Positions 22,424 to 39,024 of a stretch of 44,887 nucleotides of DNA are shown piece after piece. Position 1 is the stretch's first letter, and every line of letters begins with the position of its first letter. Below the pieces are notes generated by a model. It saw only the letters and a program-made list of their open reading frames with translations. It was not told the DNA's origin and made no database searches. A program made the position numbers and the translations under genes. Source of the stretch: a virus; the IMG/VR virus record IMGVR_UViG_3300017751_000040, positions 1-44,887 of that record; one strand, 5' to 3'.

Positions 22424-23065
22424 ATGGCTACTTTCAAACAATTCAAAGCGCAAGATATAATAATATCTCCACTAGAGGTAAATAAGGGATTTAGGTTCGT
22501 TGCAAATTCACCAACACCTACTGTCTCACCTACTCCTAGTTTAACACCATCCATAAGTGCTACGCCTAGTATTAGTATAACACCTAGTGTTAGTGCTACG
22601 CCTAGTATTAGTGTAACACCTAGTATAACGGTAAGTATATCTGTAAGTAAAACACCTAGTATAAGTAGAACACCTAGTATAACACCTAGTATATCTTTAA
22701 GTGGAGCCCCTGGTCAATCACCAACTCCAACTCCATCAATTAGTATTACACCTAGTGTTAGTGCTACACCTAGTATTAGTGTAACACCTACAATATCTGT
22801 AACCCCATCAGCAACATCAAATCTATTTTCAGAAACAAATTATGGTTATGATAATGGTAATTCACAAGATGCTTGTGATGATATAGGTTCTAATCCAGCA
22901 ATTTATTCAAATATAGAATGGCTTGAACTTTCATCTCCAATTTTATATTTTAATTCTACTGGTACTAAACGTGCTGCACCTGGATATTATGCAATAGGTA
23001 GTATAGTTAAATATTATGGTACTTCAGGTACTTGGGGATCTAGTGGAGAATTTTGTGCAGGTTAA
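22424..23065 (+). CDS. Thr-Pro-Ser repeat adhesin, short form (213 aa)
   Basis: Residues 1-28 form a short anchor (MATFKQFKAQDIIISPLEV). About 30-130 is a low-complexity stretch built on Thr-Pro-Ser-Ile/Val-Ser, interrupted once by a Gly/Gln/Ala-rich spacer. The C-terminal domain (about 138-213) has 'GYDNGNSQDACDD', 'LYFNSTGTKRAAPGYYAIGS' and a last Cys near the end. A homologous module closes the 1235-residue protein immediately downstream, so the two proteins are related. It is probably a tail-tip or fibre protein with a glycosylatable stalk. The anchor resembles the first residues of its upstream neighbour (F-K-x-F-x-x-Q-D), which suggests both dock to the same site. Confidence 0.65.
   Translation: MATFKQFKAQDIIISPLEVNKGFRFVANSPTPTVSPTPSLTPSISATPSISITPSVSATPSISVTPSITVSISVSKTPSISRTPSITPSISLSGAPGQSPTPTPSISITPSVSATPSISVTPTISVTPSATSNLFSETNYGYDNGNSQDACDDIGSNPAIYSNIEWLELSSPILYFNSTGTKRAAPGYYAIGSIVKYYGTSGTWGSSGEFCAG
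22513..22815 (+). repeat. Thr-Pro-Ser coding repeat, first block
   Basis: About 300 bases of degenerate tandem repeats built on ACACCTAGTATTAGTGTA-type units, encoding the Ser/Thr/Pro-rich stalk of the 213-residue protein. The same unit makes up the much longer block downstream, which indicates spread by duplication. Confidence 0.85.
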
Positions 23066-23088: not shown

Positions 23089-26000
23089 ATGGCGTTTTTT
23101 AACGATGATAATGTAGGAATAGATAGATACTTTGGGAAACCAGGGAACTATCTTAATTCTCAATCCTTATCAAGTACAGATTCTGTTTATTTTGTACCTG
23201 AAGTATTAGTTTATGCTAATGCTTCTCAGCTATATTATACAAATTATATATCAGGTAGTTTTGGAGAAATTTCAGATGCAATTGTACCTACAGAAAATTT
23301 AGATACAACATTAACTCCACCTTCGGGTTCGGATGATGTGTATAATACAATTTATTACAATTATGAGGAAACAACATTAAATCCTCAAAAGTCATTTCCA
23401 ACATCCCAAAGTATTGGAGTAATAACTATACCTTCAAAATTATATGGAGATTATATTCAACCAGGAACGGTTAAAATAGAAAGCCCAAATAGTGGAACTA
23501 TAACTGATGATGGGAATGGTAGATTAAGAATTACAGGAAGTAGTGGAAATTCTCTTTTTGTTGGTAATGTAATTTACGAACATGGAATGATTATGTTAGC
23601 TAACACATTAACAGATGCTGATTATGATACATTATCAATTCCTCCTTCACCCTCTATAACCCCTTCAATAACCCCATCACTTACACCTACAGCAACTGTA
23701 ACTAGAACACCTAGTAGAACACCTAGTATAACACCTAGTATAACAATAAGCCCATCAGTAAGTGCAACACCTAGTAGATCTATAAGTGCAACACCTAGTG
23801 TAACTGTTAGTAAATCAGTAACTACTACACCAAGTATTACAATTACACCTAGTAAATCTATAAGTAAAACACCAAGTATTAGTATAAGTCCAACACCAAG
23901 TACTAGTATAAGTAGAACTCCTACTATATCAATAACTGCTACACCTAGTGTAACCCCTAGTAAATCAATTAGTGCTACACCTAGTATAACAGTAAGTAAA
24001 TCAATTAGTGCTACACCTAGTATAACAGTAACTAAATCTGTAAGTTTAACACCTTCAATTTCACTAACCCCAAGTATTACAATTAGCCCATCAATTAGTG
24101 CTACACCTAGTATTTCAATTTCACCTACTAGAACACCATCTATATCAATTACACCTAGTAAATCTATAAGTGCTACACCAAGTGTTACACCGAGTATTAC
24201 AATTAGTAAATCGATAAGTTCTACACCTAGTATTTCTATTACACCTAGTATAACTGTTAGTAAGTCTATTAGTGCCACACCTAGTATTTCTATTACACCT
24301 AGTATAACTGTTAGTAAGTCTATTAGTGTAACACCTACAATATCTGTAACACCTAGTATTAGTATAAGTAAAACACCTAGTATAACACCTAGTATTACAA
24401 TTAGCAAATCAATTAGTGCAACACCTAGTATTTCTATTACACCTACAATATCTGTAACACCAAGTATTACTATAAGTAGAACACCTAGTATAACAATTAG
24501 TAAGTCTATAAGTGCTACTCCAAGTATTAGCATAACACCATCTACTTCAGTTACACCTAGTATTAGTATAAGTGCTACACCTAGTATTAGTATAAGTAAA
24601 ACACCTAGTATTTCTATTACACCTAGTATTTCTATTACACCTAGTAAATCTATAAGTGCTACACCTAGTGTAACACCTAGTATTACAATTAGTAAATCGA
24701 TAAGTAGAACACCTAGTATAACAGTAAGTAAATCTATAAGTGCTACACCTTCTAATACACCAAGTATTTCAGTAAGTGTTACACCTACTAGAACAGCAAC
24801 AACAACACCAAGTATTAGTATAAGTAAAACACCAGCGGTTTCATCAACACCTAGTACATCAATTAGTGCAACTCCTAGTACAACTGCAAGTAAGTCAATA
24901 ACACCTACTAGAACACCTAGTATTAGTATAAGTGCTACACCAAGTGTTACACCTACAATATCTGTTACACCTAGTATAACGGTTAGTAAATCGATAAGTA
25001 GAACACCTAGTAAAACTAGAACACCAAGTATAACACCTACAATATCTATTACACCAACTATTAGTATAAGTGCTACACCTTCTAGAACACCTAGTATAAC
25101 AGTAAGTAAATCGATAACTAGAACACCAAGTGTAACACCTACAATATCTATTACACCTACTAGCACCAGAACACCTTCTAGAACACCTAGTAAATCGATA
25201 AGTAGAACACCATCTAGAACACCTAGTATAACAGTAAGTAAATCGATAACTAGAACACCATCTAGAACTCCTAGTATCACAATAAGTAAATCGATAAGTT
25301 CTACACCTAGTATTTCTATTACACCTAGTATAACACCTACAATATCTATTACACCTACTAATACCAGAACACCTTCTAGAACACCAAGTATTAGTATAAG
25401 TGCTACACCAAGTGTAACACCTACAATATCTATTACACCTAGTAAAACTAGAACACCTAGTATATCAATTACTAGAACACCTAGTATTACAATTAGTAAA
25501 TCAATTAGTGCAACACCTAGTATTTCTATTACACCTAGTAAAACTAGAACACCTTCTAGAACACCTAGTAAATCGATAAGTAGAACACCATCTAGAACAC
25601 CTAGTAAATCGATAACTAGAACACCATCTAGAACTCCTAGTATCACAATAAGTAAATCGATAAGTAGAACACCTAGTAAAACTAGAACACCATCTAGAAC
25701 ACCTAGTATATCAATTACTAGAACACCTAGTGTAACTAGAACAAGATCAGTAACACCAACTCCATCAAGAAAATTAGTAGATATAGATATTTTCATAGCA
25801 GCATCTAATTGGGATGCAACTAAAGATATGGATTTATTCTCTTACAGCTCTTGTAATGTAATTGGAAATGGAAGTAATCAATATTCTGTAGATGTAATTA
25901 AATCAACATCAAATGGTGGTTCAAATTTATATCCAGAAGTAGGTGATGAAATAAGAGTATCAGGAGCAGTTGTACAAGGTAGTGGATTCTTTGGATACGT

Positions 26001-26796
26001 AGATACATCAGGAACTTTTGCTCCAGGACCACAAGATGTTTATGTACAAGTTAATGCACAAGGAATTGTTTCTACTGGAATGACATTATGTACTACTATT
26101 ACACCAACACCTACTAGAACAAGATCAGTAACACCTTCTAAATCTATAACACCTAGTTATACACCTACTAGAACACCATCTAAAACACCATCTAGAACAC
26201 CTAGTAGAACAGCAACACCTTCAAGTTCACCAACTTTATTCCAATACCAATCAGTTAGTTCAGAAGGTTCAGGTGCAACGACAATTGCAACTGCCTGTGG
26301 AACATTTACAAACCAAACTTCATTCTGGGTTGCTCGTTCATCATTATCTTCAATTCAAGTAGGAGATGAAATTTATAAAAACTCAGCAGGTACTGTAACA
26401 TGGGTAGGAGGTTTATATTATTATGGTATCCATGTAGTTGATGGTCTCAACGCAACAAGATATATGAGAGTAAACAATGCAGGTGAAGTTACAAACACTG
26501 GTACTTGTACTTCTCCAACACCAACTCCAACAAGAACTCCATCTGGAACACCAACTAGTTTAAATGCTATATTATTAGGTTATGATGCAGATGATATAGA
26601 TGATGCTTGTATTAATGCTATGAACCCAACAACTTATTACACAAATTGTTCATCATTTGCTAATGGATGTTTCATATACTTTAATTCATTAGGATCTAAA
26701 CATGCTCCTGCAGGATACTACTCAGATGGAACATCAGCTGGAGATAAAACTTCAACAGGAGCAATTAATTTAACAAACTTATGTACACCGTTCTAA
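23089..26796 (+). CDS. Giant Thr-Pro-Ser repeat adhesin with Cys-rich modules (1235 aa)
   Basis: Domain order: an N-terminal beta region (about 1-180); a low-complexity stalk of some 710 residues (about 185-895) made of Thr-Pro-Ser-Ile and Ser-Lys-Ser-Ile units; a module at 896-1004 with two Cys; a 45-residue repeat linker; a second Cys module (about 1049-1142); a short linker; and a third module (about 1158-1235) homologous to the end of the 213-residue protein ('GYDADDIDDACINAM', 'IYFNSLGSKHAPAGYYSDG'). The stalk is mucin-like, and Lys/Arg at intervals make it basic. Directly downstream lie glycosyltransferases of a type that modifies Ser/Thr or hydroxyproline. Probably a long fibre displaying three binding modules; the binding target is unknown. 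Confidence 0.7.
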   Translation: MAFFNDDNVGIDRYFGKPGNYLNSQSLSSTDSVYFVPEVLVYANASQLYYTNYISGSFGEISDAIVPTENLDTTLTPPSGSDDVYNTIYYNYEETTLNPQKSFPTSQSIGVITIPSKLYGDYIQPGTVKIESPNSGTITDDGNGRLRITGSSGNSLFVGNVIYEHGMIMLANTLTDADYDTLSIPPSPSITPSITPSLTPTATVTRTPSRTPSITPSITISPSVSATPSRSISATPSVTVSKSVTTTPSITITPSKSISKTPSISISPTPSTSISRTPTISITATPSVTPSKSISATPSITVSKSISATPSITVTKSVSLTPSISLTPSITISPSISATPSISISPTRTPSISITPSKSISATPSVTPSITISKSISSTPSISITPSITVSKSISATPSISITPSITVSKSISVTPTISVTPSISISKTPSITPSITISKSISATPSISITPTISVTPSITISRTPSITISKSISATPSISITPSTSVTPSISISATPSISISKTPSISITPSISITPSKSISATPSVTPSITISKSISRTPSITVSKSISATPSNTPSISVSVTPTRTATTTPSISISKTPAVSSTPSTSISATPSTTASKSITPTRTPSISISATPSVTPTISVTPSITVSKSISRTPSKTRTPSITPTISITPTISISATPSRTPSITVSKSITRTPSVTPTISITPTSTRTPSRTPSKSISRTPSRTPSITVSKSITRTPSRTPSITISKSISSTPSISITPSITPTISITPTNTRTPSRTPSISISATPSVTPTISITPSKTRTPSISITRTPSITISKSISATPSISITPSKTRTPSRTPSKSISRTPSRTPSKSITRTPSRTPSITISKSISRTPSKTRTPSRTPSISITRTPSVTRTRSVTPTPSRKLVDIDIFIAASNWDATKDMDLFSYSSCNVIGNGSNQYSVDVIKSTSNGGSNLYPEVGDEIRVSGAVVQGSGFFGYVDTSGTFAPGPQDVYVQVNAQGIVSTGMTLCTTITPTPTRTRSVTPSKSITPSYTPTRTPSKTPSRTPSRTATPSSSPTLFQYQSVSSEGSGATTIATACGTFTNQTSFWVARSSLSSIQVGDEIYKNSAGTVTWVGGLYYYGIHVVDGLNATRYMRVNNAGEVTNTGTCTSPTPTPTRTPSGTPTSLNAILLGYDADDIDDACINAMNPTTYYTNCSSFANGCFIYFNSLGSKHAPAGYYSDGTSAGDKTSTGAINLTNLCTPF
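23641..25772 (+). repeat. Main Thr-Pro-Ser coding repeat array
   Basis: About 2.1 kb of degenerate in-frame repeats with an 18-54 nt period. Some parts are exact: a 52-nt stretch at 24223-24274 recurs at 24277-24328 (54-nt period), and a 60-nt stretch at 25240-25299 recurs at 25606-25665. Exact copies imply recent duplication or gene conversion, so length probably varies between related phages. No spacer structure of CRISPR type is present. Confidence 0.9.
26098..26235 (+). repeat. Thr-Pro-Ser repeat linker between Cys modules
   Basis: A short block of the same repeat family, richer in Arg codons, joining the first and second C-terminal modules of the 1235-residue protein. A further mini-linker of the same kind lies at about 26512-26560. 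Confidence 0.8.
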
Positions 26797-26806
26797 AAAA
26801 TAAAAT

Positions 26807-27331
26807 ATGGGGTTATTAAATATAAATGAAAATAATTTACATTATTATAATGGTAATAATATTACTGTTTCACTTAATTATATGAATAATGTAAAAATGT
26901 TCTATTTAAATACAGGAAAACATATAGATGATTGTCCTAGCTATATAAATAGTTTTGTTAATAAATTAAATAAATTTGAATTTGATTCCATTTTAATAGG
27001 TGGGGCAGGTTTAGGAATATTAGCTCATTGGGTAGATACAAATACATCTTGTTCTAAAATAGATGTAATTGAAAATGAAAGTGAAGTAATTACTTGGTTA
27101 AGTGAAAGTAACCATTTATCTTCGGATATTAATATTATAGAAGGAGATGCTTTTAATCATAATATAACTGCAAGTTATGATTTAATACTAATGGATTTAT
27201 GGTGGGATACAGCAGGTGACTACAATAATGATGAATTAAAATTAATAACAAAGTATTCAGGTAGTTTAAATGAAAGTGGATCTTTATATTTTCCAATTAA
27301 TTCCAAAGTTTTAAATTTAGAATCAATATAA
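26807..27331 (+). CDS. Small SAM-dependent methyltransferase-like protein
   Basis: A 174-residue protein with the class I methyltransferase (spermidine synthase-like) outline: motif I 'SILIGGAGLGILAHWV' (about 62-77), the acidic end of strand 2 in 'IDVIENESEV' (about 85-94), 'INIIEGDAF' (about 105-113) and motif IV 'YDLILMDLWWD' (about 124-134). It is short for the family and appears to lack the last strands. It lies between the repeat adhesin and the glycosyltransferases, so it may methylate a glycan or the adhesin; equally it could be a degenerate fold with a structural role. The fold call is fairly good, the substrate unknown. Confidence 0.6.
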   Translation: MGLLNINENNLHYYNGNNITVSLNYMNNVKMFYLNTGKHIDDCPSYINSFVNKLNKFEFDSILIGGAGLGILAHWVDTNTSCSKIDVIENESEVITWLSESNHLSSDINIIEGDAFNHNITASYDLILMDLWWDTAGDYNNDELKLITKYSGSLNESGSLYFPINSKVLNLESI

Positions 27332-27340
27332 TATTTATTA
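27331..27340 (+). promoter_or_regulatory. ATATTTATTA variant motif, candidate promoter
   Basis: ATATTTATTA followed by TAAAA begins at the last base of the methyltransferase-like stop codon and lies 9 nt before the ATG at 27350. It differs by one base from the common form and is a weaker candidate. Confidence 0.4.
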
Positions 27341-27349
27341 TAAAATAAT

Positions 27350-27676
27350 ATGGGCTCAAGAGATAGTTTTTTACAAGCTTTTATAGGTGAGATGGATGTG
27401 ACTATGTCATTTTCTAGTTCATATGAAATATTTGAAACCCAATATAAATGTACAATAGGCTCTGAAGAATATAATTACACAAATAATCCAACAGTTATAT
27501 CAGGAAGTCAAGGACAACCTTATGACTATGTAACTGGATCATATTTTTCTCCTTATATTACTTGTGTAGGATTATATGATGAAGCTTATAATTTATTAGC
27601 AGTAGGAAAATTAGCACAACCATTACCAACATCTCGTACAACAGATACTACAATTTTGGTTAATATAGATAGATAA
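27350..27676 (+). CDS. Small protein with the shared tail-protein C-terminal module
   Basis: A 108-residue protein that is essentially a free-standing copy of the module at the end of the 351-residue tail protein: 'EEYNYTNNPTVISGSQGQP', then 'CVGLYDEAYNLLAVGKLAQPL' and a final 'TILVNIDR'. The start region (MGSRDSFLQAFIGEMDVT) is different. It is probably a virion protein that docks with, or substitutes for, the longer one. It lies directly before the first glycosyltransferase, separated by about 54 nt with a weak promoter-like sequence. Confidence 0.6.
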   Translation: MGSRDSFLQAFIGEMDVTMSFSSSYEIFETQYKCTIGSEEYNYTNNPTVISGSQGQPYDYVTGSYFSPYITCVGLYDEAYNLLAVGKLAQPLPTSRTTDTTILVNIDR

Positions 27677-27706
27677 AATTATTTGGTTGTTGAATAAAAT
27701 GGTCGT

Positions 27707-27715
27707 ATATTATAA
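27707..27715 (+). promoter_or_regulatory. Shortened ATATTATAA motif, weak promoter candidate
   Basis: CGTATATTATAATAAAA here closely resembles the CGTATATTTATAACAAAA seen at 40103-40120 but lacks one T. It lies 15 nt before the ATG at 27731 and would head the glycosyltransferase run. Confidence 0.35.
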
Positions 27716-27730
27716 TAAAAGTTATATCGA

Positions 27731-29161
27731 ATGTCAAAATCTAAAGGGCTGGGTGATACAGTAGCCAAAATCACTAAATTTTTTAAAATAGATAAACTTG
27801 TTAAATCCATAGATGAAGATTGTGGGTGTGATAAAAGACAAGAATATTTAAATAAAATAGTACCTTATAAATCGTCTAAAAAAGACGAAAGTATATTTAT
27901 ACAAATAGCAGCATATAGAGACCCTGAATTAAATAATACTTTAGAAGATTTATTTAAAAATGCTGAAAATCCAAATAATCTTAAAGTTTGTATTGCTTGG
28001 CAACATGATGATAAAGATGAATGGGATCAATTAGATCAATACCAAAATGATAGCAGAGTTTTAATTTTAGATATTCCTTATAAAGAATCAAAGGGTGTAT
28101 GTTGGGCTAGAAACATGATCCAACAATATTATACTGATGAAACTTATACTTTACAATTAGATTCCCATCATAGATTTATTAAAAACTGGGATACAGAATT
28201 AATTAAAATGTATAAAGATCTTCAGAAAAAAGGACATAAAAAACCTTTAATAACTAGTTATTTACCCTCGTATTTTCCAGAAAAAGACCCTAAAGATAGA
28301 ACACAAGAGTGTTGGCAACAAGATTTTAATAGATTTACTCCCGAAGGTTATATATTTACTTTTCCTTCCCTAATCTCAGGGTGGGAAAACTTAGATTCCC
28401 CGGTTCCAGGAAGATTTTATTCTGCTCATTTTGCTTTTGCAGGAGGAGCATTTTGTAATGAAGTACAACATGACCCTGAAATGTATTTTCATGGTGAAGA
28501 ACCTAGTATAGCTGCTAGATCTTTTACTTGGGGTTATGATATCTTTCACCCTCATAAAATTATAGCATGGCATTTTTATAGTAGAAACGGTTTTATAAAA
28601 CATTGGGATGACCATAGCAATTGGAATGATATTGATGAACATTCCCATTTAAGATATCGAACTTTACATGAAATGGACGGGCATAAATGTACACCATGTG
28701 CCAAAAATGCCTTAGGAAAATATTATTTTGGGGAAGTAAGAACCTTAGAAGAATATGAGCGTTATGCTGGATTAAAATTTGGGGATAGAACAGTAACCCA
28801 ATTTACTTTAGATAGAAATGTACCTCCTAACCCACCAGATAAATACGAAGGCATGTTAAGACCTCATTTTAAACATTGTATTGATGTGCATCAAGACCAT
28901 TTTAATGAAGATGATTATGATTTTTGGGTAGTTTCTTTTGAAATGGAAGATGGTACAGTAGTAGATAGACAAGATGCAGATGCTAATGAATTAAAAAGAT
29001 TATTAGAACAAGCTAAAGGAGATGATGGTTGGGTTAGAATTTGGAGGGAATTTTTTGGACAAAAACCTGATAAATGGGTTATATGGCCTCATTCCGAATC
29101 TAAGGGATATATTGAAAGATATGAAGTAAAATTAAATAAAGGAATAACACCACCTCAATGA
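27731..29161 (+). CDS. GT60-like polypeptide GlcNAc-transferase homologue (476 aa)
   Basis: From about residue 55 the protein follows the GlcNAc glycosyltransferase family that includes Skp1-hydroxyproline and mucin-type Ser/Thr GlcNAc-transferases (GT60): 'IFIQIAAYRDPELNNTLEDLF', 'VCIAWQHDD', 'ESKGVCWARNMIQ', the metal-binding 'LQLDSHHRF' (about 140-148), and downstream 'FAFAGGAFCNEVQHDPEM' and 'GEEPSIAARSFTWGYDIFHPH'. The catalytic part runs to about residue 350; the remainder is phage-specific and ends with a Trp-rich segment. Known members transfer GlcNAc from UDP-GlcNAc to protein. Lying shortly after the Ser/Thr/Pro-rich adhesin, it may glycosylate it (inference). It overlaps the paralogue downstream (ATGA). 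Confidence 0.8.
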   Translation: MSKSKGLGDTVAKITKFFKIDKLVKSIDEDCGCDKRQEYLNKIVPYKSSKKDESIFIQIAAYRDPELNNTLEDLFKNAENPNNLKVCIAWQHDDKDEWDQLDQYQNDSRVLILDIPYKESKGVCWARNMIQQYYTDETYTLQLDSHHRFIKNWDTELIKMYKDLQKKGHKKPLITSYLPSYFPEKDPKDRTQECWQQDFNRFTPEGYIFTFPSLISGWENLDSPVPGRFYSAHFAFAGGAFCNEVQHDPEMYFHGEEPSIAARSFTWGYDIFHPHKIIAWHFYSRNGFIKHWDDHSNWNDIDEHSHLRYRTLHEMDGHKCTPCAKNALGKYYFGEVRTLEEYERYAGLKFGDRTVTQFTLDRNVPPNPPDKYEGMLRPHFKHCIDVHQDHFNEDDYDFWVVSFEMEDGTVVDRQDADANELKRLLEQAKGDDGWVRIWREFFGQKPDKWVIWPHSESKGYIERYEVKLNKGITPPQ

Positions 29162-30429
29162 GAAAAATAATGTTACATCTCCCTGCTTACAGGGAACCTG
29201 AATTAATACCCACTATCAAGGATGCATTAGCCCAAGCTAAAAATCCTAAAAGAATACACTTTGGTATTTGTAGACAATATAATCCTGAGGATGGTTTTGA
29301 TAATTTAGATGAATTTAGAGATGATCCTAGATTTAAAATATCAGATATTCCTTATGAAGAAGCTAAAGGTTTACCTTATGCTAGAGCCATTATAAATGAA
29401 GAATTGTTAGATGATGAAGATTTTGTATTACAGTTAGATGCCCATCATAGGTTTGCAAAAGACTGGGATGTAACTTTAATTAAATGGTATGATAAATTAA
29501 AAAAGAAAGGTAAAAATCCTTTAATATGTGGTTATTTACCATACTATAATCCATTTAATGACCCATCAGAAAGAGTAAATGAACCATGGTTTAGTGAAGC
29601 AGCATGTTTTTATCCACATGGTACTATATTTATTCGTCCCACAGGATACCATCATGTAGACCATAAAACATTAAAAGAACCAGTACCAGCTAGATTTATT
29701 TCAGGTCATTTTTGTTTTGGTCCAAATAAATGGGCTAAAGAAGTAAAACATGACCCAGAAATATATTTTTCAGGAGAAGAATTAAATTTATCTGTTAGAA
29801 GTTTTACTCATGGTTATGATTTATTTCATCCACACCAAGTAGTTGTTTGGCATGCTACAATGCGTGAAGAAAGAGATAATATGTTAATATGGGATGATCA
29901 ATCCAAACGTGGAGATGATATGTGGTGGAGACAACAAGATATAGGAAGAGCTAGAATTAGACAACTTATAGGAGTTGAAGATAATGGTTATGATTTAGGT
30001 GAATATGGTTTGGGTAGTGTCCGTACTATAAGAGATTATGAAAAATATGCTGGTATTCATTTTAAGAAAAAATCATTTCAAAAACATACTAGAGACAATA
30101 AATTCCCTCCAAACCCTATAATTGAAGATGAACAAGAATGGGAGGATAGTTTTATGTTTTCATTTTATCATTTAGTAAATGTTACCCCTGACCAACTACC
30201 AGCTAAAGATTATAATTTTATTTTAATAGCATATGATGATAAAGATGGAAATAGTATTAATAGTGAATATGTAGATGATTATAGGCTAAAACAATTTTTG
30301 GAAGAAGGTAAACCTATCCATTATGAAAAAATGTTTATGACTGATGAAAATCCTACAAGGGTAGTATATTGGGGACATAGTGAAGAAAGAGGATGGGTTG
30401 AAAGAATAGAAGAAAATTTAATAAAATAA
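29158..30429 (+). CDS. GT60-like glycosyltransferase, second paralogue (423 aa)
   Basis: A paralogue of the preceding gene without its first 55 residues: 'IMLHLPAYREPELIPTIKDAL', 'EEAKGLPYARAIIN', metal-binding 'LQLDAHHRF' (about 91-99), 'SGHFCFGPNKWAKEVKHDPE' and 'GEELNLSVRSFTHGYDLFHPH'. All expected motifs are intact, so both copies look active. The two have diverged substantially, which suggests different acceptors or sequential addition. The C-terminus shares the 'RVVYWGHSEERGW' type of ending with the first copy ('KWVIWPHSESKGY'). Overlaps the upstream gene by 4 nt and is followed 6 nt later by the carbamoyltransferase. Confidence 0.8.
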   Translation: MRKIMLHLPAYREPELIPTIKDALAQAKNPKRIHFGICRQYNPEDGFDNLDEFRDDPRFKISDIPYEEAKGLPYARAIINEELLDDEDFVLQLDAHHRFAKDWDVTLIKWYDKLKKKGKNPLICGYLPYYNPFNDPSERVNEPWFSEAACFYPHGTIFIRPTGYHHVDHKTLKEPVPARFISGHFCFGPNKWAKEVKHDPEIYFSGEELNLSVRSFTHGYDLFHPHQVVVWHATMREERDNMLIWDDQSKRGDDMWWRQQDIGRARIRQLIGVEDNGYDLGEYGLGSVRTIRDYEKYAGIHFKKKSFQKHTRDNKFPPNPIIEDEQEWEDSFMFSFYHLVNVTPDQLPAKDYNFILIAYDDKDGNSINSEYVDDYRLKQFLEEGKPIHYEKMFMTDENPTRVVYWGHSEERGWVERIEENLIK

Positions 30430-30435
30430 AAATAA

Positions 30436-32055
30436 ATGGCAAACATAAGTTTTTACGGTTCACACAATGGGTCATATGTTGTAGAACAAGATGGTGAAAT
30501 TTTACTTGTATTAGAAATAGAACGGTTTTTAAATTATAAAAATAGTGGAATAGCACAATACAAGACTGCAAAAGCTGATGATGTTCAGTTTTTATCTAAA
30601 TTAATTCCAAAATATATAATGGATACATTAAATATTAAAGAATTTGAAAATTGTTATTATCTAAACACAGATATAATCCATAATGGGATACATATCCTTC
30701 ATAATGATATACCAGCAAAAAATTATATTTTAAGTAAACACCATGAATCACATGCTGCTGGTACTTTTTATCAATCTCCACATAAAGAAGCATTATTATT
30801 TTCTTTTGATGGTGGGGGAGATGATGGTAAATTTAATATATATCATGCAAAACGAGAAGAATCAGTAAAACTACTTGAATGCGTACCTAACCCAATAATT
30901 AATTTACCTCATGTATTTTATGACTTAGGTTTTCCTTATATGATATTTGGACATTATATGAAAGATATAAGGTTTGAACCACTTAGTGAAGGAAATTTAG
31001 TGTATGCTGGTAAGCTTATGGGTTTAGTATCTTATGGTAAGGTTGTTGAAGAATGGTTACCTCATTTTATTAATTTTTACAAAAGTGATGTTAATGGATT
31101 AAATTGGTTAGAAAAAGTTAAAATATTAGGTGATGAAATTGGTGTAAATTTTGATGTAGAGAACAGACTTGAAGGAGATATAGCATATAATGTAGCTACA
31201 ACGTCACAAAGAGCATTTGAAGAATGTTTTCTAGAAGTAGCTAAACCTTATTTTGAAAAATACCCAGATTTACCAATTGGTATAACTGGTGGTTGTGGTT
31301 TAAATATAATATTAAATACTAGATTAGTAGAAGAATTTGGTAAAAACGTTTTTGTTGCTCCTGGTCCTAATGATTGTGGTATAGCATTAGGTATGTTATT
31401 ACATCATTTAAAACCATCAAACCCAATTGATGTTACCTATAAAGGGGTAGAATTATTAGATCAAAATACTCTTGGACATCATGTTCAAACTAGAGAATTT
31501 CCTTTTAGATCATATGATTTAAATGTTTTAGACTTAGTAGAGGATTTATCAAAAGGTAAAATAGTAGGAGTAGCCAGAGGGGGAGCGGAACATGGACCTC
31601 GTGCTCTTGGTAATAGAAGTATAATATGTGATCCATCTTTCCCCGAAATGAAAGATATATTAAATGCTAAAGTAAAAAATAGAGAATGGTATCGACCTTT
31701 TGCTCCTGTAGTAAGACTTGAAGATGTTAATGAATATTTTGAATGGGATAAAGAAAGTAGATGGATGTCATTTTGCCCTAAAGTTCAGAAAAAATGGAGA
31801 AAAAAACTATCTTCAATTACTCATGTTGATAATACTGCTAGAGTACAAACCGTAACTAAAGAACAAAATCCTTGGTTGTATGATTTATTAACTCAATTTA
31901 AAGAAAAAACTGGAGTTGGAGTACTATTAAATACATCATTTAATGTTGCTGGAAAACCTATTTTATCAAGTTTAACAGATGCTTGGGATATATTTCAAAA
32001 AAGCCAAATGGATGGTTTAATTATTAATGATTATTACTTTAAAAAAACAATTTAA
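30436..32055 (+). CDS. NodU/TobZ-type O-carbamoyltransferase
   Basis: A 539-residue protein close to the usual family length. The N-terminal Kae1-like half shows 'SKHHESHAAGTF' (about 100-111), which holds metal-binding His residues, and 'FSFDGGGDDG' (about 121-130). The C-terminal half has 'GGAEHGPRALGNRSI' (about 382-396), 'WYRPFAP' (about 418) and 'LLNTSFN' (about 497), the family signature. These enzymes make carbamoyl-adenylate from carbamoyl phosphate and ATP and move the carbamoyl group to a hydroxyl, usually of a sugar. Position after two glycosyltransferases suggests capping of their product. An alternative is carbamoylation of 5-hydroxymethylcytosine in DNA, which a related viral enzyme has been reported to do. 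Confidence 0.9.
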   Translation: MANISFYGSHNGSYVVEQDGEILLVLEIERFLNYKNSGIAQYKTAKADDVQFLSKLIPKYIMDTLNIKEFENCYYLNTDIIHNGIHILHNDIPAKNYILSKHHESHAAGTFYQSPHKEALLFSFDGGGDDGKFNIYHAKREESVKLLECVPNPIINLPHVFYDLGFPYMIFGHYMKDIRFEPLSEGNLVYAGKLMGLVSYGKVVEEWLPHFINFYKSDVNGLNWLEKVKILGDEIGVNFDVENRLEGDIAYNVATTSQRAFEECFLEVAKPYFEKYPDLPIGITGGCGLNIILNTRLVEEFGKNVFVAPGPNDCGIALGMLLHHLKPSNPIDVTYKGVELLDQNTLGHHVQTREFPFRSYDLNVLDLVEDLSKGKIVGVARGGAEHGPRALGNRSIICDPSFPEMKDILNAKVKNREWYRPFAPVVRLEDVNEYFEWDKESRWMSFCPKVQKKWRKKLSSITHVDNTARVQTVTKEQNPWLYDLLTQFKEKTGVGVLLNTSFNVAGKPILSSLTDAWDIFQKSQMDGLIINDYYFKKTI

Positions 32056-33047
32056 TGCAAGATTTCCATTATATTTTTTTCCCAATAGGACCTCAATTTA
32101 TTAAGACATTAATTAGTACTTTTAAATGGGTACCTAAAGATACTAATGTTATAGTATTAACAAACACCCCTGAATTTTTTGATAATTTAGATATTAATTT
32201 TAATCTAACAGTATTAGATATAGATCAACTTTCAGATAAAGAAAGTCAATTAAATGAACCCTTAATAAAGGAATATGATAATGATAAATTCATATCAAAG
32301 CTTTTAGAAAAAAGTAAAGAAGGAAATATTTTTCCTTATGGTAAACATCGATTTGTTATACCATGGTTGTTAGAAAGAAATATTACAAAATTTGCTTTAT
32401 TAGATAGTGATTGTGTTTTAAATTATCATAACCAACATACAAGTGTTTTAAATCATATAAATACAGAATATGCTGGTAAAAATTTACTGATTTCATTACC
32501 AATGAATTTTACAGCAGATATAAATAATATTTGGGATAATTTTTCAGAGGCTTTTACTAAATATGGAATATCAGAAGATGAAGTAAAAAGTTTAGGTAAT
32601 GATTTAAAAATGAATGATGGGTGGTTAAGAGGTTTTGATTTTAAAGATAAAAATCTATTAGAAATGTATTTTAATATATGGAATGATATTTTAAAAATTT
32701 CATATAGTAATAAACATGATTTACTTAAGTGGAATTCTTGGACAGTAGCAGATGAATGGATACATGGAATACTATCATTATTATTAAAGAAAAAATTTGA
32801 TATAATTACTGAAGATATTACATTTGGTGGTCATAGATTAGTTCATCATTTTTATCATCCTGAAAATGATTATTTTAATTTACACCATGGTAGTTTATAT
32901 CAAGATATGTACAAAATGGTTCAAACTACAAGTAGACAAGAATTTTATAAAAAAAATAAAGACAATATAATTAAGTTTTATAAATATCAAAATGGAGTAG
33001 ACCCAGTAAACGTTAAAAAATTAATATACGATTGGCCATATGAGTAA
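32055..33047 (+). CDS. Putative GT-A-type glycosyltransferase (330 aa)
   Basis: The layout is that of a nucleotide-sugar-dependent GT-A enzyme: an N-terminal alternating beta/alpha half with 'TNVIVLTNTPEFF' and, after about 115 residues, 'FALLDSDCVL', whose D-S-D is a DxD-like metal site. Later segments include 'WTVADEWIHGILSLLL' (about 232-247) and 'GGHRLVHHFYHP', with His that may complete the site. I do not recognise a CAZy family. It starts on the last base of the carbamoyltransferase stop (TAATG) and overlaps the next gene by 8 nt, so it is co-translated in the glycan block. Confidence 0.6.
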   Translation: MQDFHYIFFPIGPQFIKTLISTFKWVPKDTNVIVLTNTPEFFDNLDINFNLTVLDIDQLSDKESQLNEPLIKEYDNDKFISKLLEKSKEGNIFPYGKHRFVIPWLLERNITKFALLDSDCVLNYHNQHTSVLNHINTEYAGKNLLISLPMNFTADINNIWDNFSEAFTKYGISEDEVKSLGNDLKMNDGWLRGFDFKDKNLLEMYFNIWNDILKISYSNKHDLLKWNSWTVADEWIHGILSLLLKKKFDIITEDITFGGHRLVHHFYHPENDYFNLHHGSLYQDMYKMVQTTSRQEFYKKNKDNIIKFYKYQNGVDPVNVKKLIYDWPYE

Positions 33048-34740
33048 AAATTATACAATAGTTTCGGGTTTATGGGATTTAAACCGAGAAGGAAGAAAGT
33101 TTGAAGAACATTATATTCCTAGATTTAAAGAATTTTTAAAGATCGAAGCAAATATGATTTTATTTGCTCCTGCTTCATTAGAAAAACTTATATGGGAACA
33201 TAGAAGCCCAGATAATACTTTTGTTAAAATATTTGAATTAGAGGATATAAAACAATTATATGCTCCACACTGGGATAAAACACAAGAAATCAGAAAAAAC
33301 CCAGATTGGTATAATTTAACAGGTGAAGGTGGATGGTTACCAAATAGCCCTCAGGCATCATTAGAATATTATAATCCTATAGTACAATCTAAAATGTTTA
33401 TGTTACATGATGCTGTATGTTATAATAACTTTGAAACTGATTATTATTTTTGGGTTGATGCAGGTTTAACTAATACCGTCCCTGCTACACATTTAGGTGA
33501 AAACAATTGTTTAGATTATTTAACTGAATGTTCAAATCCCTTTCTATTTTTATCTTATCCTTATGATGCAGCAGATGAAATACATGGGTTTAAATACCCT
33601 GAAATGAATGAAATTGCAGGGAAAAAAGTAAAATATGTTTGTAGAGGAGGTTTATTTGGTGGGCATAAAGACCAAATCAGAGAAGCTAACTCAACTTATT
33701 ATTCATTATTAACTCAAACCTTAGAAAGAGGCTTAATGGGTACAGAAGAAAGTATTTTTTCTATTATGGCTCATAAAGAACCAAATTTATACAGAAGATT
33801 TGAATTAGATGGAAATGGTTTAGTAGTAAAATTTACAGAAGCTTTAGTAAATAAAGATGTTAAATTAGTTGATATCCCTAAAAATTCTAAACTTAATAAA
33901 AAAGTATCTATATGGGATTTAAAAAAATTAAAAACAAATTTATATATTTTAACATTTAATTTTCCAAAACAGTTAGAATTTACAATAAAAACAATGGAAA
34001 AAACTCCCGAATGGTTGGAGAAACCCCATTTAGTATTATTAGACAATTCTACAGACGAAAAAGCAAAAGCTAAAAATAAAAAAATAGCAAAAAAATATAA
34101 ATTTGAATATATTGATAATGGAGGTAATATAGGAATATGTGGGGGAAGACAAGCAGCAGCAGATCATTTTGATAAATCAGATGCTGATTATTATTTCTTT
34201 TTTGAAGATGATATGACATCAAACCCACCTTCAATGGAAGGGCAATTTTGTAGAAATGGTTTAAGAAAATTTATTCCTGATTTATATAATATATTACATA
34301 CAATTATGTTAAAGGAAGATTTTGATTTTTTAAAATTATCCTTTACAGAAGTATATTGGGATAATAATATTCAAACTAGTTGGTATAATGTTCCACAAGA
34401 CATAAGAACTAGGGATTGGCCCAATTATGATAAATTACCTACTACTGGTAATGACCCTAATGCCCCTAGGACTATCTTTAATAGGATAGATAGTTTAAAT
34501 GGGGTAGCTTACATAAATGGGGAAATTACTTATACCAATTGGCCTATGATTGTTTCTAAAAAAGGTAATAAAAAAATGTTTATAGACACAAAATGGGATC
34601 ATCCTTATGAACAAACTAGGATGTCTTATATGTACCAAGAAACTAAAAAAGGCAACCTAAATCCTGCAGTTTTATTAGCTTCTCCTATATGGCATGAACG
34701 TATTCATTATTACAAGCCTGAGGAACGAAGAGAAAATTAA
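33040..34740 (+). CDS. Bifunctional HtrL/YibB-like + GT2-like glycosyltransferase fusion (566 aa)
   Basis: Two modules are visible. Residues 1-280 resemble the HtrL/YibB group: 'YTIVSGLWDLNREGRKF' at the start, 'QSKMFMLHDAV' and 'YYFWVDAGLTN' (about 133-143), then 'CRGGLFGG' and 'GTEESIFSIM'. Residues from about 300 are a GT2-type domain: 'NLYILTFNFPKQLEFTIKTM', 'LVLLDNSTDEKAK', 'YIDNGGNIGICGGR' and a DxD-like 'YFFFEDDMTSNPP' (about 384-396). Such a fusion would add two sugars in sequence. The acceptor is not known. It ends the glycan block; an ATATTTATAT motif follows at its stop codon. Confidence 0.65.
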   Translation: MSKNYTIVSGLWDLNREGRKFEEHYIPRFKEFLKIEANMILFAPASLEKLIWEHRSPDNTFVKIFELEDIKQLYAPHWDKTQEIRKNPDWYNLTGEGGWLPNSPQASLEYYNPIVQSKMFMLHDAVCYNNFETDYYFWVDAGLTNTVPATHLGENNCLDYLTECSNPFLFLSYPYDAADEIHGFKYPEMNEIAGKKVKYVCRGGLFGGHKDQIREANSTYYSLLTQTLERGLMGTEESIFSIMAHKEPNLYRRFELDGNGLVVKFTEALVNKDVKLVDIPKNSKLNKKVSIWDLKKLKTNLYILTFNFPKQLEFTIKTMEKTPEWLEKPHLVLLDNSTDEKAKAKNKKIAKKYKFEYIDNGGNIGICGGRQAAADHFDKSDADYYFFFEDDMTSNPPSMEGQFCRNGLRKFIPDLYNILHTIMLKEDFDFLKLSFTEVYWDNNIQTSWYNVPQDIRTRDWPNYDKLPTTGNDPNAPRTIFNRIDSLNGVAYINGEITYTNWPMIVSKKGNKKMFIDTKWDHPYEQTRMSYMYQETKKGNLNPAVLLASPIWHERIHYYKPEERREN

Positions 34741-34762: not shown

Positions 34763-35248
34763 ATGAGTTGGACCTATAAAACGCATAAAATAGGAGATAT
34801 TACTCAATTCCCAGAAAATACATTCGGTTTCGTTTATATAACAACACACAAACCTACGGGTAAGTCTTATATTGGGAAAAAGGTATTATTTCATAATAAA
34901 AAAAAGAGACTCGGAAAAAAAGAGTTAGCTGCCTTAACTGGGATTGTTGGACGTCGCCCTACATATAAATTAGAAGTTAAAGAATCAGATTGGGAAAAGT
35001 ACTATGGTTCCCAAAAAGAAATTAAACAACTATTATTAGAAGGTAAAAAAGATGAATTTGAGCGTATTATATTAAAAATGTGTCCTGATAAAAAATCAAT
35101 GACCTATTTTGAAGTTAAATATCAAATGCTTTATCAAGTATTAGAAAAACCAGATGAATTTTTTAATGATAATATTTTAGGTAAATTTTTTACAAAAGAC
35201 TTAAAAGATATTAACTACGAAGATCCTTTGGAAATTAAAATACATTAG
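34763..35248 (+). CDS. GIY-YIG nuclease-like protein (161 aa)
   Basis: Residues 22-45 read 'GFVYITTHKPTGKSYIGKK', a good GIY-YIG core in which G-F-V-Y replaces G-I-Y and Y-I-G is intact; 'DWEKYYGSQKEI' (about 76-87) is the usual W-x-x-Y-Y-G-S segment. A Glu in 'MTYFEVKYQMLY' (about 113-124) is a candidate for the catalytic helix. Homologues recur in T4-like marine phages beside replication genes. It may be a free-standing homing-type endonuclease or a repair nuclease. Downstream are primase and a PD-(D/E)XK nuclease. Confidence 0.75.
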   Translation: MSWTYKTHKIGDITQFPENTFGFVYITTHKPTGKSYIGKKVLFHNKKKRLGKKELAALTGIVGRRPTYKLEVKESDWEKYYGSQKEIKQLLLEGKKDEFERIILKMCPDKKSMTYFEVKYQMLYQVLEKPDEFFNDNILGKFFTKDLKDINYEDPLEIKIH

Positions 35249-36989: not shown

Positions 36990-37679
36990 ATGGGTTTTTA
37001 TAGGGGGCCAAATATAGTAACAGAAAATCTAGTAATATCCGTAGATGCAGCATCAACCAGATCATATCCAGGTAGTGGGGGTGTTTGGTATGACTTAAGT
37101 GGTAATGATATTAATCTTGGGAGTTCAGGATCCCCTACTTTAACTACACTAGGAGGAGCAACTTGTTTTAATTTTGATCAAGATGGAGATTATTGGTCCG
37201 CAAATGGCATTCCCAGTAGTGCTAATTCTAATACTACCCAAAGAACATTAGAAGCATGGTTATACCCTGCTTCATCTGAAGTAACAAGTGGTGATAGAGG
37301 AACTATAATTTTATTACATGGTGGAAATGGAAATTATATGTCTATTACAAAAAGTGGTAGACAGTTATCAAGTTACTGGTATGGAAAAAACAATAATGGA
37401 TATTTTCAAGGAGCACCTGCAATTACAAATCAAACATGGAATTGGTGGTGTACTGTATGGACTGGGAGTGAACTTAAACAGTGGCAAAATGGAACAAAAT
37501 ACACTACTAGTAATATTACAGGTACTAGTACTCGTAATGGCAATTTATTAATAGGTAGAGAAAGTTCAGGTAGACAATATTCGGGAGGAATTGCTATAGT
37601 ACGTATTTATAATAGTGCATTAACTGATGATGAAGCTTTACAAAATTATAATGCACAAAAAACTAGATTTGGATTATAA
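36990..37679 (+). CDS. LamG-like adhesin, copy 1 (229 aa)
   Basis: Opens with 'MGFYRGPNIVTENLVISVDA', followed by a LamG/concanavalin-type jelly roll: 'VWYDLSGNDINL' (about 33-44), 'RTLEAWLYPAS' (about 85-95), 'SSYWYGKNNNGYF', 'WNWWCTVWTGSELKQWQNG' and, at the end, 'GGIAIVRIYNSALTDDEALQNYNAQK'. That last helix-capped strand is a hallmark of the family. It is the first of three tandem paralogues. Such domains bind glycans or proteins, so these are probably receptor-binding or capsid/tail decoration proteins. The stop overlaps the next start (TAATG). Confidence 0.75.
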   Translation: MGFYRGPNIVTENLVISVDAASTRSYPGSGGVWYDLSGNDINLGSSGSPTLTTLGGATCFNFDQDGDYWSANGIPSSANSNTTQRTLEAWLYPASSEVTSGDRGTIILLHGGNGNYMSITKSGRQLSSYWYGKNNNGYFQGAPAITNQTWNWWCTVWTGSELKQWQNGTKYTTSNITGTSTRNGNLLIGRESSGRQYSGGIAIVRIYNSALTDDEALQNYNAQKTRFGL

Positions 37680-38338
37680 TGGGATTTTATAGAGGACCAC
37701 ATATAATAACAGAAGATTTATTTATACAACTAGATTTTACTTCCCCTAGATGTTTAAACAATGGTTTATCATCAGTAAAAAACTTAGCTGAAGGTGGAGC
37801 GGCTTGTGGTATTACTAATTCTGGTACTGATATTTCTTTAGATACTACTACTTTAAGCAATGGTATGAGCTGTTTAAATTGGATAGGAACTACTGCTGCT
37901 TATATAGATACACCTGATACAGGTGGTATGCCTTTATTTTCATTAGAAGTTTGGGTATATAATGTTAGTGGAGGCAATAGTAGACATAGTATATTTAGAA
38001 ATTTTTGGGAAATTGTAGGTACTTCAATTCAATTTTGGAGTTATTCTTTTGATAATGATTACTGGAGAGCATCCTCAAGTGGGTTAGTACCTTATGATGA
38101 ATGGACTCATATTACAACTACATGGGATGGAACCTATGTTAGACATTATATCAATGGTGATTTAGAATATACACAACCAGATGCATCTGGGGGAACAAGT
38201 GAAAATATGTATCACCTAACAGGATATAATGGAAGGAGATTTAGAGGTAAAATAGGTTCTTTTAGCTGTTATAAAAAATGTTTAAGTGCAACTGAAATTT
38301 TACAAAACTATAATGCTAAAGTAAGCAAATTCGTATAA
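37679..38338 (+). CDS. LamG-like adhesin, copy 2 (219 aa)
   Basis: A paralogue of copy 1, with the same N-terminal tag ('MGFYRGPHIITEDLFIQLDF') and C-terminal signature ('ATEILQNYNAKVSKFV'), but its middle has diverged strongly: 'PLFSLEVWVYNVSGG', 'YDEWTHITTTWDGTYVRHYINGD'. Several Cys (about 21, 43, 63, 203, 206) are not shared with copy 1. Conserved ends and a variable middle indicate a common docking part with different ligand surfaces. It starts on the last base of copy 1's stop codon and precedes copy 3 by 2 nt. Confidence 0.75.
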   Translation: MGFYRGPHIITEDLFIQLDFTSPRCLNNGLSSVKNLAEGGAACGITNSGTDISLDTTTLSNGMSCLNWIGTTAAYIDTPDTGGMPLFSLEVWVYNVSGGNSRHSIFRNFWEIVGTSIQFWSYSFDNDYWRASSSGLVPYDEWTHITTTWDGTYVRHYINGDLEYTQPDASGGTSENMYHLTGYNGRRFRGKIGSFSCYKKCLSATEILQNYNAKVSKFV

Positions 38339-38340
38339 TA

Positions 38341-39024
38341 ATGTATGTAGGACCAAATTTAGTCAAACCGGGATTAGGAGTAGCTTATGATTTTACCTCA
38401 AGAAGATCATGGATACCAGGGAGTAGTACTGTCAAAGATATTTCAGGTAACGGTAATACAGGTACAGTCTATAATAGCCCTGCTACTCAAGATACAGATA
38501 CTACAGCACAAAATTTGTATTTTAATGGTAGTAACAATTATATCCAAATATCTGCAAACCAAACTTCATTATGGTTTAATAATGGCCAAACTATAGGTAT
38601 GTGGGTTTACCATACTATAAACTCTGGAAGAAGAAATTTTTGGGATCAAGCGTATGGAGGCTCGGGTACTATGACTCATGAACAAGGAGGAGGTATTAGT
38701 TATTATTATGGAAGTAACGGTGCAAATGGTGGGTCTTATAAAGGATTTGGTAGTAGTTCTATACCTGGAAATACTTGGTCCTACTTTTGTGTTTCAAGAT
38801 ATACAGGAGGAGCAAAATGGTATTTAAATGGGGTAAATACACAAACAACAACAGATAGTTATACACCAATGAGTACTAATACTACAGCTAATATTAGAAT
38901 AGGATTAGGGTATACTGGAGTATATTTAAAAGCAAATATAGCCTCTGTTCATGCTTATAGAAATGGACTATCAGATGCTGAAGTTTTACAAAATTATAAC
39001 GCATTAAAAGGAAGATTTATATAA
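38341..39024 (+). CDS. LamG-like adhesin, copy 3 (227 aa)
   Basis: The third paralogue: a shortened tag ('MYVGPNLVKPGLGVAYDF'), 'VKDISGNGNTGTVYNSP' (the D-x-S-G-N segment typical of LamG), 'GQTIGMWVYHTINSGRRNF', 'GNTWSYFCVSRYTGGAKWYLNG' and 'IASVHAYRNGLSDAEVLQNYNALKGRFI'. It is as divergent from copies 1 and 2 as they are from each other, so the duplications are old. It overlaps the following gene by one base (TAATG). The function is inferred to be surface or receptor binding. Confidence 0.75.
   Translation: MYVGPNLVKPGLGVAYDFTSRRSWIPGSSTVKDISGNGNTGTVYNSPATQDTDTTAQNLYFNGSNNYIQISANQTSLWFNNGQTIGMWVYHTINSGRRNFWDQAYGGSGTMTHEQGGGISYYYGSNGANGGSYKGFGSSSIPGNTWSYFCVSRYTGGAKWYLNGVNTQTTTDSYTPMSTNTTANIRIGLGYTGVYLKANIASVHAYRNGLSDAEVLQNYNALKGRFI

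What the first reader, a model, noticed from the sequence alone, without database searches (positions are those of the whole stretch)
23089..34740. Candidate phage-encoded virion glycosylation system: mucin-like fibre plus GT60 pair plus carbamoyltransferase
Seen: a 1235-residue adhesin with a stalk of about 710 residues of Thr-Pro-Ser repeats is followed, within about 1 kb and on the same strand, by two intact GT60-like glycosyltransferases, a NodU/TobZ-type carbamoyltransferase, a GT-A-like enzyme and an HtrL/YibB-GT2 fusion, with tight overlaps from 27731 onward. Known: characterised GT60 enzymes add GlcNAc to Ser/Thr of mucins or to hydroxyproline on Skp1; NodU-type enzymes carbamoylate sugar hydroxyls. 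Inference: the phage decorates its own fibre with a carbamoyl-capped glycan, giving a bacterial-virus analogue of a mucin that could stiffen the fibre, protect it or alter its adhesion. I know of no described system with this make-up.
Basis: partly seen in the sequence, partly recalled or inferred. Interest (0 to 1): 0.86.

Follow-up and report, generated by a model that had tools for sequence, protein, structure and literature searches.

The report
Phage cassette for mucin-like tail fibres
A water-borne bacterial virus carries a set of sugar-attaching enzymes next to its own Thr-Pro-Ser-rich tail fibres; the same enzyme family goes with such repeat tails across unrelated viruses and on bacterial injection needles, so microbes probably have their own version of mucin-type protein glycosylation.

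Summary
GT60 plus HtrL-GT2 is a widespread aquatic-phage module. The carbamoyltransferase is optional. At genome level, all 23 cassette-bearing records of at least 100 kb encode TPS-repeat proteins. None of 50 random viral contigs does (5 of them at least 100 kb), nor any of 29 tail-lineage controls. All six large records picked only for the repeat carry GT60 and HtrL. In bacteria, GT60 lies beside P/T/S-repeat genes. In 81 Paraburkholderia genomes, the seven with GT60 are exactly the seven with a VgrG spike whose C-terminus is an S/T-P repeat. Modelled GT60 is closest to mucin-initiating ppGalNAc-transferases and has their DxH metal motif. Most likely GT60 starts O-glycans on the repeats and the other enzymes extend and cap them. 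No chemistry was tested. Carbamoyl capping is the weakest step. Repeat stalks also occur at the homologous locus without the cassette.

The parts
22424..23065 (+).
   Evidence: its C-terminal domain is homologous to the last domain of the long fibre
23089..26796 (+). 1235-aa tail-fibre-like protein: head domain (1-185), 726-residue S/T/P stalk (172-897; 23602-25779), C-terminal modules joined by two shorter STP linkers (26065-26274, 26470-26580); main candidate acceptor
   Evidence: head domain shared with stalkless structural proteins in 76 loci
26807..27331 (+). 174-aa methyltransferase-like protein; optional, seen in only a few relatives; may O-methylate the glycan (inference)
   Evidence: MTS E 0.002; phrog_15480 E 2e-6
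27350..27676 (+). 108-aa structural ORF, homologous to the C-terminal half of the stalkless relatives of the fibre; looks like the split-off end of the ancestral protein
27731..29161 (+). GT60-1: predicted retaining polypeptide O-glycosyltransferase (residues about 50-468; DSH motif at 144-146); residues 1-46 are a separate phage domain
   Evidence: PF11397 E 7.7e-68; DxH invariant in 43 GT60s; AF2 pLDDT 88.8, PDB best hits ppGalNAc-T2 E 1e-9; dN/dS 0.055
29158..30429 (+). GT60-2: second GT60 paralogue, 39-40% identical
   Evidence: PF11397 E 1e-49; alignment A1; dN/dS 0.067
30436..32055 (+). NodU/TobZ-type O-carbamoyltransferase, predicted sugar-hydroxyl carbamoylation; optional part
   Evidence: PF16861 4.7e-65 and PF02543 7.5e-23; carbamoyltransferases incl. 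TobZ in PDB; 45% identical to XacN1 ORF333
32055..33047 (+). GT-A-fold glycosyltransferase of a family with no Pfam match, about 50 relatives in the fetched loci
   Evidence: D119 nearly invariant; pLDDT 90; GT6/GT8/LARGE1-like, E 5e-5, TM about 0.4
33040..34740 (+). HtrL/YibB + GT2 fusion; regular partner of GT60
   Evidence: about 40% id to XacN1 and RAS14; co-occurrence with GT60
34763..35248 (+). SegE-type GIY-YIG endonuclease: right-hand border of the island; directly follows the structural ORF where the cassette is absent
   Evidence: PF19835 E 1.2e-25

Best explanation
The window encodes a dedicated, cytosolic, mucin-type O-glycosylation cassette for the phage's own tail proteins. Proposed course: (1) GT60-1 and/or GT60-2 transfer a HexNAc, probably GlcNAc, from a UDP-sugar straight onto Ser/Thr of the Thr-Pro-Ser repeats before or during tail assembly. 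Inferred from family, fold, metal motif and genome association. (2) The two domains of HtrL-GT2 and the GT-A enzyme at 32055 extend the glycan. Inferred. (3) The carbamoyltransferase, and perhaps the methyltransferase-like ORF, cap sugar hydroxyls. Inferred and optional, since most cassettes lack it. (4) The stalk becomes a glycan-coated brush that holds the C-terminal modules away from the tail, resists proteases and shows a variable sugar surface. Inferred. What is shown is comparative: GT60 goes with S/T-P repeats across unrelated phages and bacterial injection machines; the first and last cassette genes are under strong purifying selection while the middle is swapped between sister phages; and the repeat sequence drifts while its S/T/P content stays constant.
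For: Large records: 23/23 cassette records of at least 100 kb carry the TPSxTPSxTPS pattern, all with GT60; 0/29 tail-lineage controls and 0/50 random viral contigs do. Reverse: GT60 in 16/50 records picked only for repeats and HtrL in the same 16, including all six of at least 100 kb; GT60 in 0/36 and 0/80 controls. Orthologue-matched: 76 stalkless head-domain loci have no GT60 in the flank held. Distant phages XacN1 and RAS14 have GT60-CarbT-HtrL-GT2 at 40-50% identity near a large tail protein with short SPTPTP tracts. Cellular GT60s lie beside P/T/S repeats; 13/13 VgrGs of the type found with GT60 have S/T-P tails, 0/17 other VgrGs of those genomes; Paraburkholderia 7/7 vs 0/74. Fold and DxH as in GT27 (PMC7185993). 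Selection and module swap.
Against: No biochemistry. Repeat stalks occur without the cassette at the homologous locus (L460/L473, L462; records up to 86 kb without GT60). Eighteen of 49 cassette records, all under 100 kb, lack the pattern, e.g. the 89-kb fragment G088. The 23 large records form about 9 GT60 clusters at 70% identity and share some phage lineages, so they are not 23 independent events. Structural TM-scores to ppGalNAc-T are only about 0.42-0.46. Many cellular GT60 loci show no obvious repeat gene nearby.
Confidence: 0.74

Rival explanations
1. The cassette modifies phage DNA bases (hypermodified cytosine carrying sugars or carbamoyl), not protein.
For: A phage-type carbamoyltransferase makes 5-carbamoyloxymethyl-cytosine (PMC8670742); phage glycosyltransferases often act on DNA; weak phrog_842 hit of the GT2 half.
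Against: In that study DNA-modifying carbamoyltransferases neighbour thymidylate synthase/dCMP hydroxymethylase within 3 kb, while those next to glycosyltransferases lie in unmodified contigs; the window's sits among glycosyltransferases and no thymidylate synthase family was found among the neighbours scanned. GT60 is a polypeptide Ser/Thr glycosyltransferase family (PMC7185993) and recurs beside T6SS VgrGs, where DNA modification makes no sense.
Confidence: 0.06
2. The enzymes remodel the host's surface glycan during infection (receptor masking, superinfection exclusion, serotype-like conversion).
For: Common role of phage glycosyltransferases; HtrL/YibB is associated with bacterial surface-glycan loci (own knowledge); sister phages swap the middle enzymes.
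Against: Cassette lies in the tail-gene region; genome-wide association with repeat proteins is near total in large records; no flippase or polymerase recognised among the cassette proteins.
Confidence: 0.08
3. Repeat stalks are plain unmodified spacers; the association reflects shared ancestry or shared ecology of large aquatic phages.
For: Stalks without the cassette at the same locus (L460, L462, L473); some shared lineages among positives.
Against: At least three phage lineages with few shared genes (G093 shares 2-9 genes with the others) plus XacN1/RAS14; random and lineage controls at zero; independent bacterial cases, with other VgrGs of the same genomes as internal control.
Confidence: 0.1
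4. The cassette glycosylates the virion, but the main acceptor is another protein (capsid, sheath, C-terminal modules) and the stalk is a bystander.
For: Mycobacteriophage glycans sit on capsid and tail-tube subunits (stated in PMC12619734); in many genomes the repeats lie far from the cassette.
Against: The VgrG contrast and the adjacency in bacteria point to the repeat tract itself.
Confidence: 0.1

Closest known systems
Mycobacteriophage virion glycosylation (Freeman et al. 2023, as cited in PMC12619734)
   Same: Phage-encoded glycosyltransferases decorating the phage's own structural proteins
   Different: There capsid and tail-tube C-termini; here GT60/HtrL enzymes with long S/T-P stalks. 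The primary paper was not held, so this is second-hand
GT60 of protists (UDP-GlcNAc:polypeptide GlcNAc-transferases of T. cruzi mucins; Skp1 Gnt1)
   Same: Same Pfam family PF11397; DxH motif; polypeptide acceptor rich in T/P (PMC7185993; acceptor detail from own knowledge)
   Different: Phage or bacterial, predicted cytosolic, in a multi-enzyme cassette, with tail fibres and injection spikes as predicted acceptors
GT27 ppGalNAc-transferases (animal mucin initiation)
   Same: Best structural neighbours of the model; DxH motif; P/T/S acceptors
   Different: Different sequence family, no detectable sequence match to PDB chains; no Golgi; no lectin-type domain recognised by Pfam
Serine-rich-repeat adhesin glycosylation (GtfA/GtfB) of streptococci (own knowledge)
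   Same: Logic: cytosolic enzymes encoded with their own repeat-rich substrate
   Different: Different enzyme families; not virion proteins
Phage 5hmC carbamoyltransferase (MetaGPA, PMC8670742)
   Same: Same carbamoyltransferase superfamily, in phages
   Different: That one neighbours thymidylate synthase; this one sits among glycosyltransferases

Membership tests
GT60 (PF11397) | Profile match over the curated cut-off | tested here: met
   230 and 170.4 bits against a cut-off of 21
GT60 (PF11397) | DxH metal motif in place of DxD | tested here: met
   D144 and H146 invariant in 43 aligned GT60s; motif stated for GT60 and GT27 in PMC7185993
GT60 (PF11397) | Transfers HexNAc to Ser/Thr or hydroxyproline of a polypeptide | not testable with these tools
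   needs an enzyme assay
NodU/TobZ O-carbamoyltransferase | Both Pfam domains, near full length | tested here: met
   PF02543 at 89-319 and PF16861 at 369-537; matches to TobZ, GdmN and related PDB chains
Phage 5hmC-DNA carbamoyltransferase | Thymidylate synthase / dCMP hydroxymethylase in the neighbourhood (within 3 kb) | tested here: not met
   neighbours are glycosyltransferases, GIY-YIG, primase and nuclease
Phage 5hmC-DNA carbamoyltransferase | Specificity residues aligned to TobZ W408, G421, R423 | tested here: inconclusive
   my reading of the alignment gives V, G, R; the residues of DNA-active enzymes are in a figure supplement not read
Phage virion-glycosylation systems | Phage-encoded glycosyltransferases next to structural genes | tested here: met
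Phage virion-glycosylation systems | Glycan demonstrated on the virion | not testable with these tools
   needs mass spectrometry
Mucin / PTS-domain protein | Long P/T/S-rich tandem-repeat domain | tested here: met
   726 residues, about 65% S+T+P
Mucin / PTS-domain protein | Dense O-glycosylation of the PTS domain | not testable with these tools
   needs glycopeptide mapping
SRR-adhesin glycosylation (GtfA/GtfB type) | GtfA/GtfB-type (GT4) initiating transferase | tested here: not met
   no GT4-type Pfam match in the cassette proteins

The most novel reading that the evidence does not exclude
GT60 is a general prokaryotic counterpart of mucin-type polypeptide O-glycosyltransferases, dedicated largely to S/T-P repeat tails on contractile injection machines and related surface proteins: phage tail fibres, T6SS VgrG spikes and probably other contractile systems. 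In phages it sits in a swappable glycan cassette that varies the sugar surface of the fibre while GT60 and the repeat composition stay constant.
Probability: 0.55. Interest if true: 0.93.

Novelty: new variant of a known kind. Interest (0 to 1): 0.84.

Why it matters
It would give a predicted enzyme and predicted acceptor sites to the Thr-Pro-Ser repeat proteins of large aquatic phages, whose role was unclear, and extend mucin-type O-glycosylation to phages and bacterial injection machines. It makes a direct prediction: wherever GT60 and a P/T/S tail occur together, the tail should be glycosylated. The perfect GT60-VgrG match in Paraburkholderia provides a cellular system in which this can be tested without isolating an uncultured phage. 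I found no paper in the held library linking GT60 to phages or to VgrG; that library lacks most subscription journals.

Tried and rejected
Flank-only co-occurrence (10 kb) looked like a refutation (32/78 GT60 loci positive) and was misleading, because repeats are often far from the cassette; whole records gave the answer. A random 17-mer for control sampling returned nothing and cost a scan; a 14-mer worked. The gp6 tail-gene controls contain only two records of at least 100 kb, so random contigs were added; five of those are at least 100 kb. BLASTP of the 330-aa ORF against XacN1 ORF331 gave no homology, so that gene is not counted as conserved there. The 724-aa antisense ORF at 23622-25796 is taken as a by-product of repeats that lack stops on the other strand. 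GT60 has no sequence match in the PDB. The primary mycobacteriophage glycosylation paper is not held. TobZ specificity residues were inconclusive. PHROGs marks GT60 only as 'moron' glycosyltransferase, which does not decide function.
Full report
What is there. The window is a 44,887-base IMG/VR virus record with gp25- and gp6-like baseplate genes, followed by the region in question. The 1235-aa protein has a 726-residue tract that is about 65% Ser+Thr+Pro, with 98 TP dipeptides and only three acidic residues. A second repeat protein (22424-23065) precedes it. The cassette is GT60-1, GT60-2, carbamoyltransferase, a GT-A-like enzyme and HtrL-GT2, joined by overlaps or a 6-bp gap. Residues 1-46 of GT60-1 are homologous to stand-alone phage proteins of mostly 57-70 aa and are modelled with low confidence.

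The cassette is a real, widespread module. XacN1 and RAS14, jumbo phages of Gammaproteobacteria, carry GT60, carbamoyltransferase and the same HtrL-GT2 fusion at 40-50% identity, and a very large tail-region protein (3313 aa in XacN1) with short SPTPTP tracts about 9 kb away. GT60 was present in 23 of 24 HtrL-selected records. The carbamoyltransferase is optional: 16 of 50 records, nearly all cassette-bearing.

Does it go with Ser/Thr/Pro repeats? Within 10 kb, only 32 of 78 GT60 loci have a repeat ORF. Whole-record reading of seven seemingly negative genomes found long repeat proteins in six; the seventh is an 89-kb fragment. A pattern for TPSxTPSxTPS was then run on records: 31 of 49 cassette records, including 23 of 23 of at least 100 kb; 0 of 29 tail-lineage controls; 0 of 50 random viral contigs drawn with a meaningless 14-mer, five of them at least 100 kb. 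The reversed pattern never matched. Fisher p is 5e-7 for the large records, and 9e-5 if the 23 are reduced to 9 GT60 clusters. In reverse, 50 records chosen only for period-6 repeats had GT60 in 16 and HtrL in the same 16, including all six of at least 100 kb; GT60 was in 0 of 36 gp6 controls and 0 of 80 random contigs. The positives include phages that share only a few genes (G093 shares 2-9 with the others).

An orthologue-matched comparison. The fibre's head domain occurs in 76 loci of the head-domain scan fused directly to an S108-like C-terminus, without stalk and without any cassette gene in the flank held (flanks often short). In stalked proteins the S108 part is a separate gene, as in the window. 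So the stalk and modules appear to have split an ancestral structural protein. In L460, L462 and L473 the repeat proteins and the split gene are followed at once by GIY-YIG and primase, i.e. the island without the cassette. The stalk therefore does not strictly need a cassette at that place; whether those fragmentary genomes have one elsewhere is unknown.

Bacterial genomes. Among GT60 loci in bacterial genomes, P/T/S tracts are in 8 of 114 genes within 600 bp of GT60 against 1 of 154 at 6-12 kb (p = 0.005): Jiulongibacter (79 bp, with carbamoyltransferase and HtrL fusion), an Acidobacteria MAG (12 bp), Gemmatimonas (115 bp), Prosthecobacter (227 bp), Sphingomonas (5 bp) and others. In Burkholderiaceae the gene often sits in a T6SS-like cluster with VgrG (gene names here are my reading of the sequences). 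The VgrG orthologue has a low-complexity S/T-P tail in 13 of 13 genomes, with different repeats (PTPT, PPPSEE, TEEPPQ, PDET, STPEP, PSDEQPE, PAASDEE); 0 of 17 other VgrGs of those genomes has one. For two of the 13 (L676, L685) I did not establish that VgrG and GT60 are on one contig. In 81 Paraburkholderia genomes, GT60 is in seven; the same seven alone have the orthologous VgrG (at least 73% identity; next best 51%), on the same contig within about 5-7 kb, and all seven have the tail. These seven share ancestry of the locus, so 7 of 7 shows strict linkage, not seven origins.

Mechanistic clues. The GT60-1 model (pLDDT 88.8) has ppGalNAc-transferases as its best 24 PDB neighbours (best E 1e-9, TM about 0.42-0.46). 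D144 and H146 are invariant in all 43 aligned GT60s, the DxH motif that PMC7185993 gives for GT27 and GT60, where it also states that both families O-glycosylate polypeptide Ser/Thr. Between the window and its sister L004, GT60-1, GT60-2 and HtrL-GT2 have dN/dS of 0.055-0.067, while the stretch between 30422 and 33046 is replaced by other tailoring genes (another carbamoyltransferase, another relative of the 330-aa enzyme, a different 327-aa protein) inside 87-95% identical flanks. The fibre protein itself has dN/dS 0.36 and many indels but unchanged S/T/P content. Constant initiators, variable decorators and a constant acceptor composition fit a glycan surface under diversifying selection.

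Rivals. DNA modification is unlikely: no thymidylate synthase neighbour was found, and the T6SS cases make no sense for it. Host-glycan remodelling lacks flippase or polymerase genes and does not explain the repeat association. Pure hitchhiking is weakened by several lineages and by the internal VgrG control. Glycosylation of a different virion protein remains open.

Verdict. No wet evidence exists here. The known kind is dedicated protein O-glycosylation of a repeat-rich substrate; the enzyme family, its acceptors and its spread across phage tails and T6SS spikes are, to my knowledge, undescribed.

Noticed in passing
L664-L685, L712-L724, L742-L745 (Burkholderiaceae): VgrG spikes found with GT60 carry long S/T-P low-complexity C-terminal tails with very different repeat units; other VgrGs of the same genomes do not.
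   Followed up: yes
L655:7966-15169 (Jiulongibacter sediminis chromosome): Bacterial locus with a P/T/S-repeat protein flanked by two divergent GT60s plus carbamoyltransferase and an HtrL fusion.
   Followed up: partly
27731-27868 and L006-L018: The 46-residue GLGDT...DEDCGCDKRQ segment at the start of GT60-1 is a stand-alone small protein in many phages; fused to GT60 in others. Function unknown, perhaps a targeting tag.
   Followed up: partly
30422-33046 against L004:12694-16226: Tailoring part of the cassette is swapped between sister phages between conserved GT60-2 and HtrL-GT2, like a serotype switch.
   Followed up: partly
L677:6385-14053, L688:6384-12477 (Sphingomonas MAGs): GT60 beside an approximately 1200-aa protein with PTPVPTP tracts; it may belong to another contractile system, identity not tested.
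   Followed up: no
36990-39024: Three consecutive paralogous proteins; the first has a Laminin_G_3 (ConA-like lectin) match; possible further receptor-binding proteins.
   Followed up: no
40127-40927: Zeta-toxin-like kinase (PF06414 E 1.1e-17) in the phage.
   Followed up: no
G010:C1:23862-25480 and G033:C1:72847-74465: Extra truncated-looking GT60 copies, one in a 933-aa frame, in the two records with the most GT60 copies.
   Followed up: no
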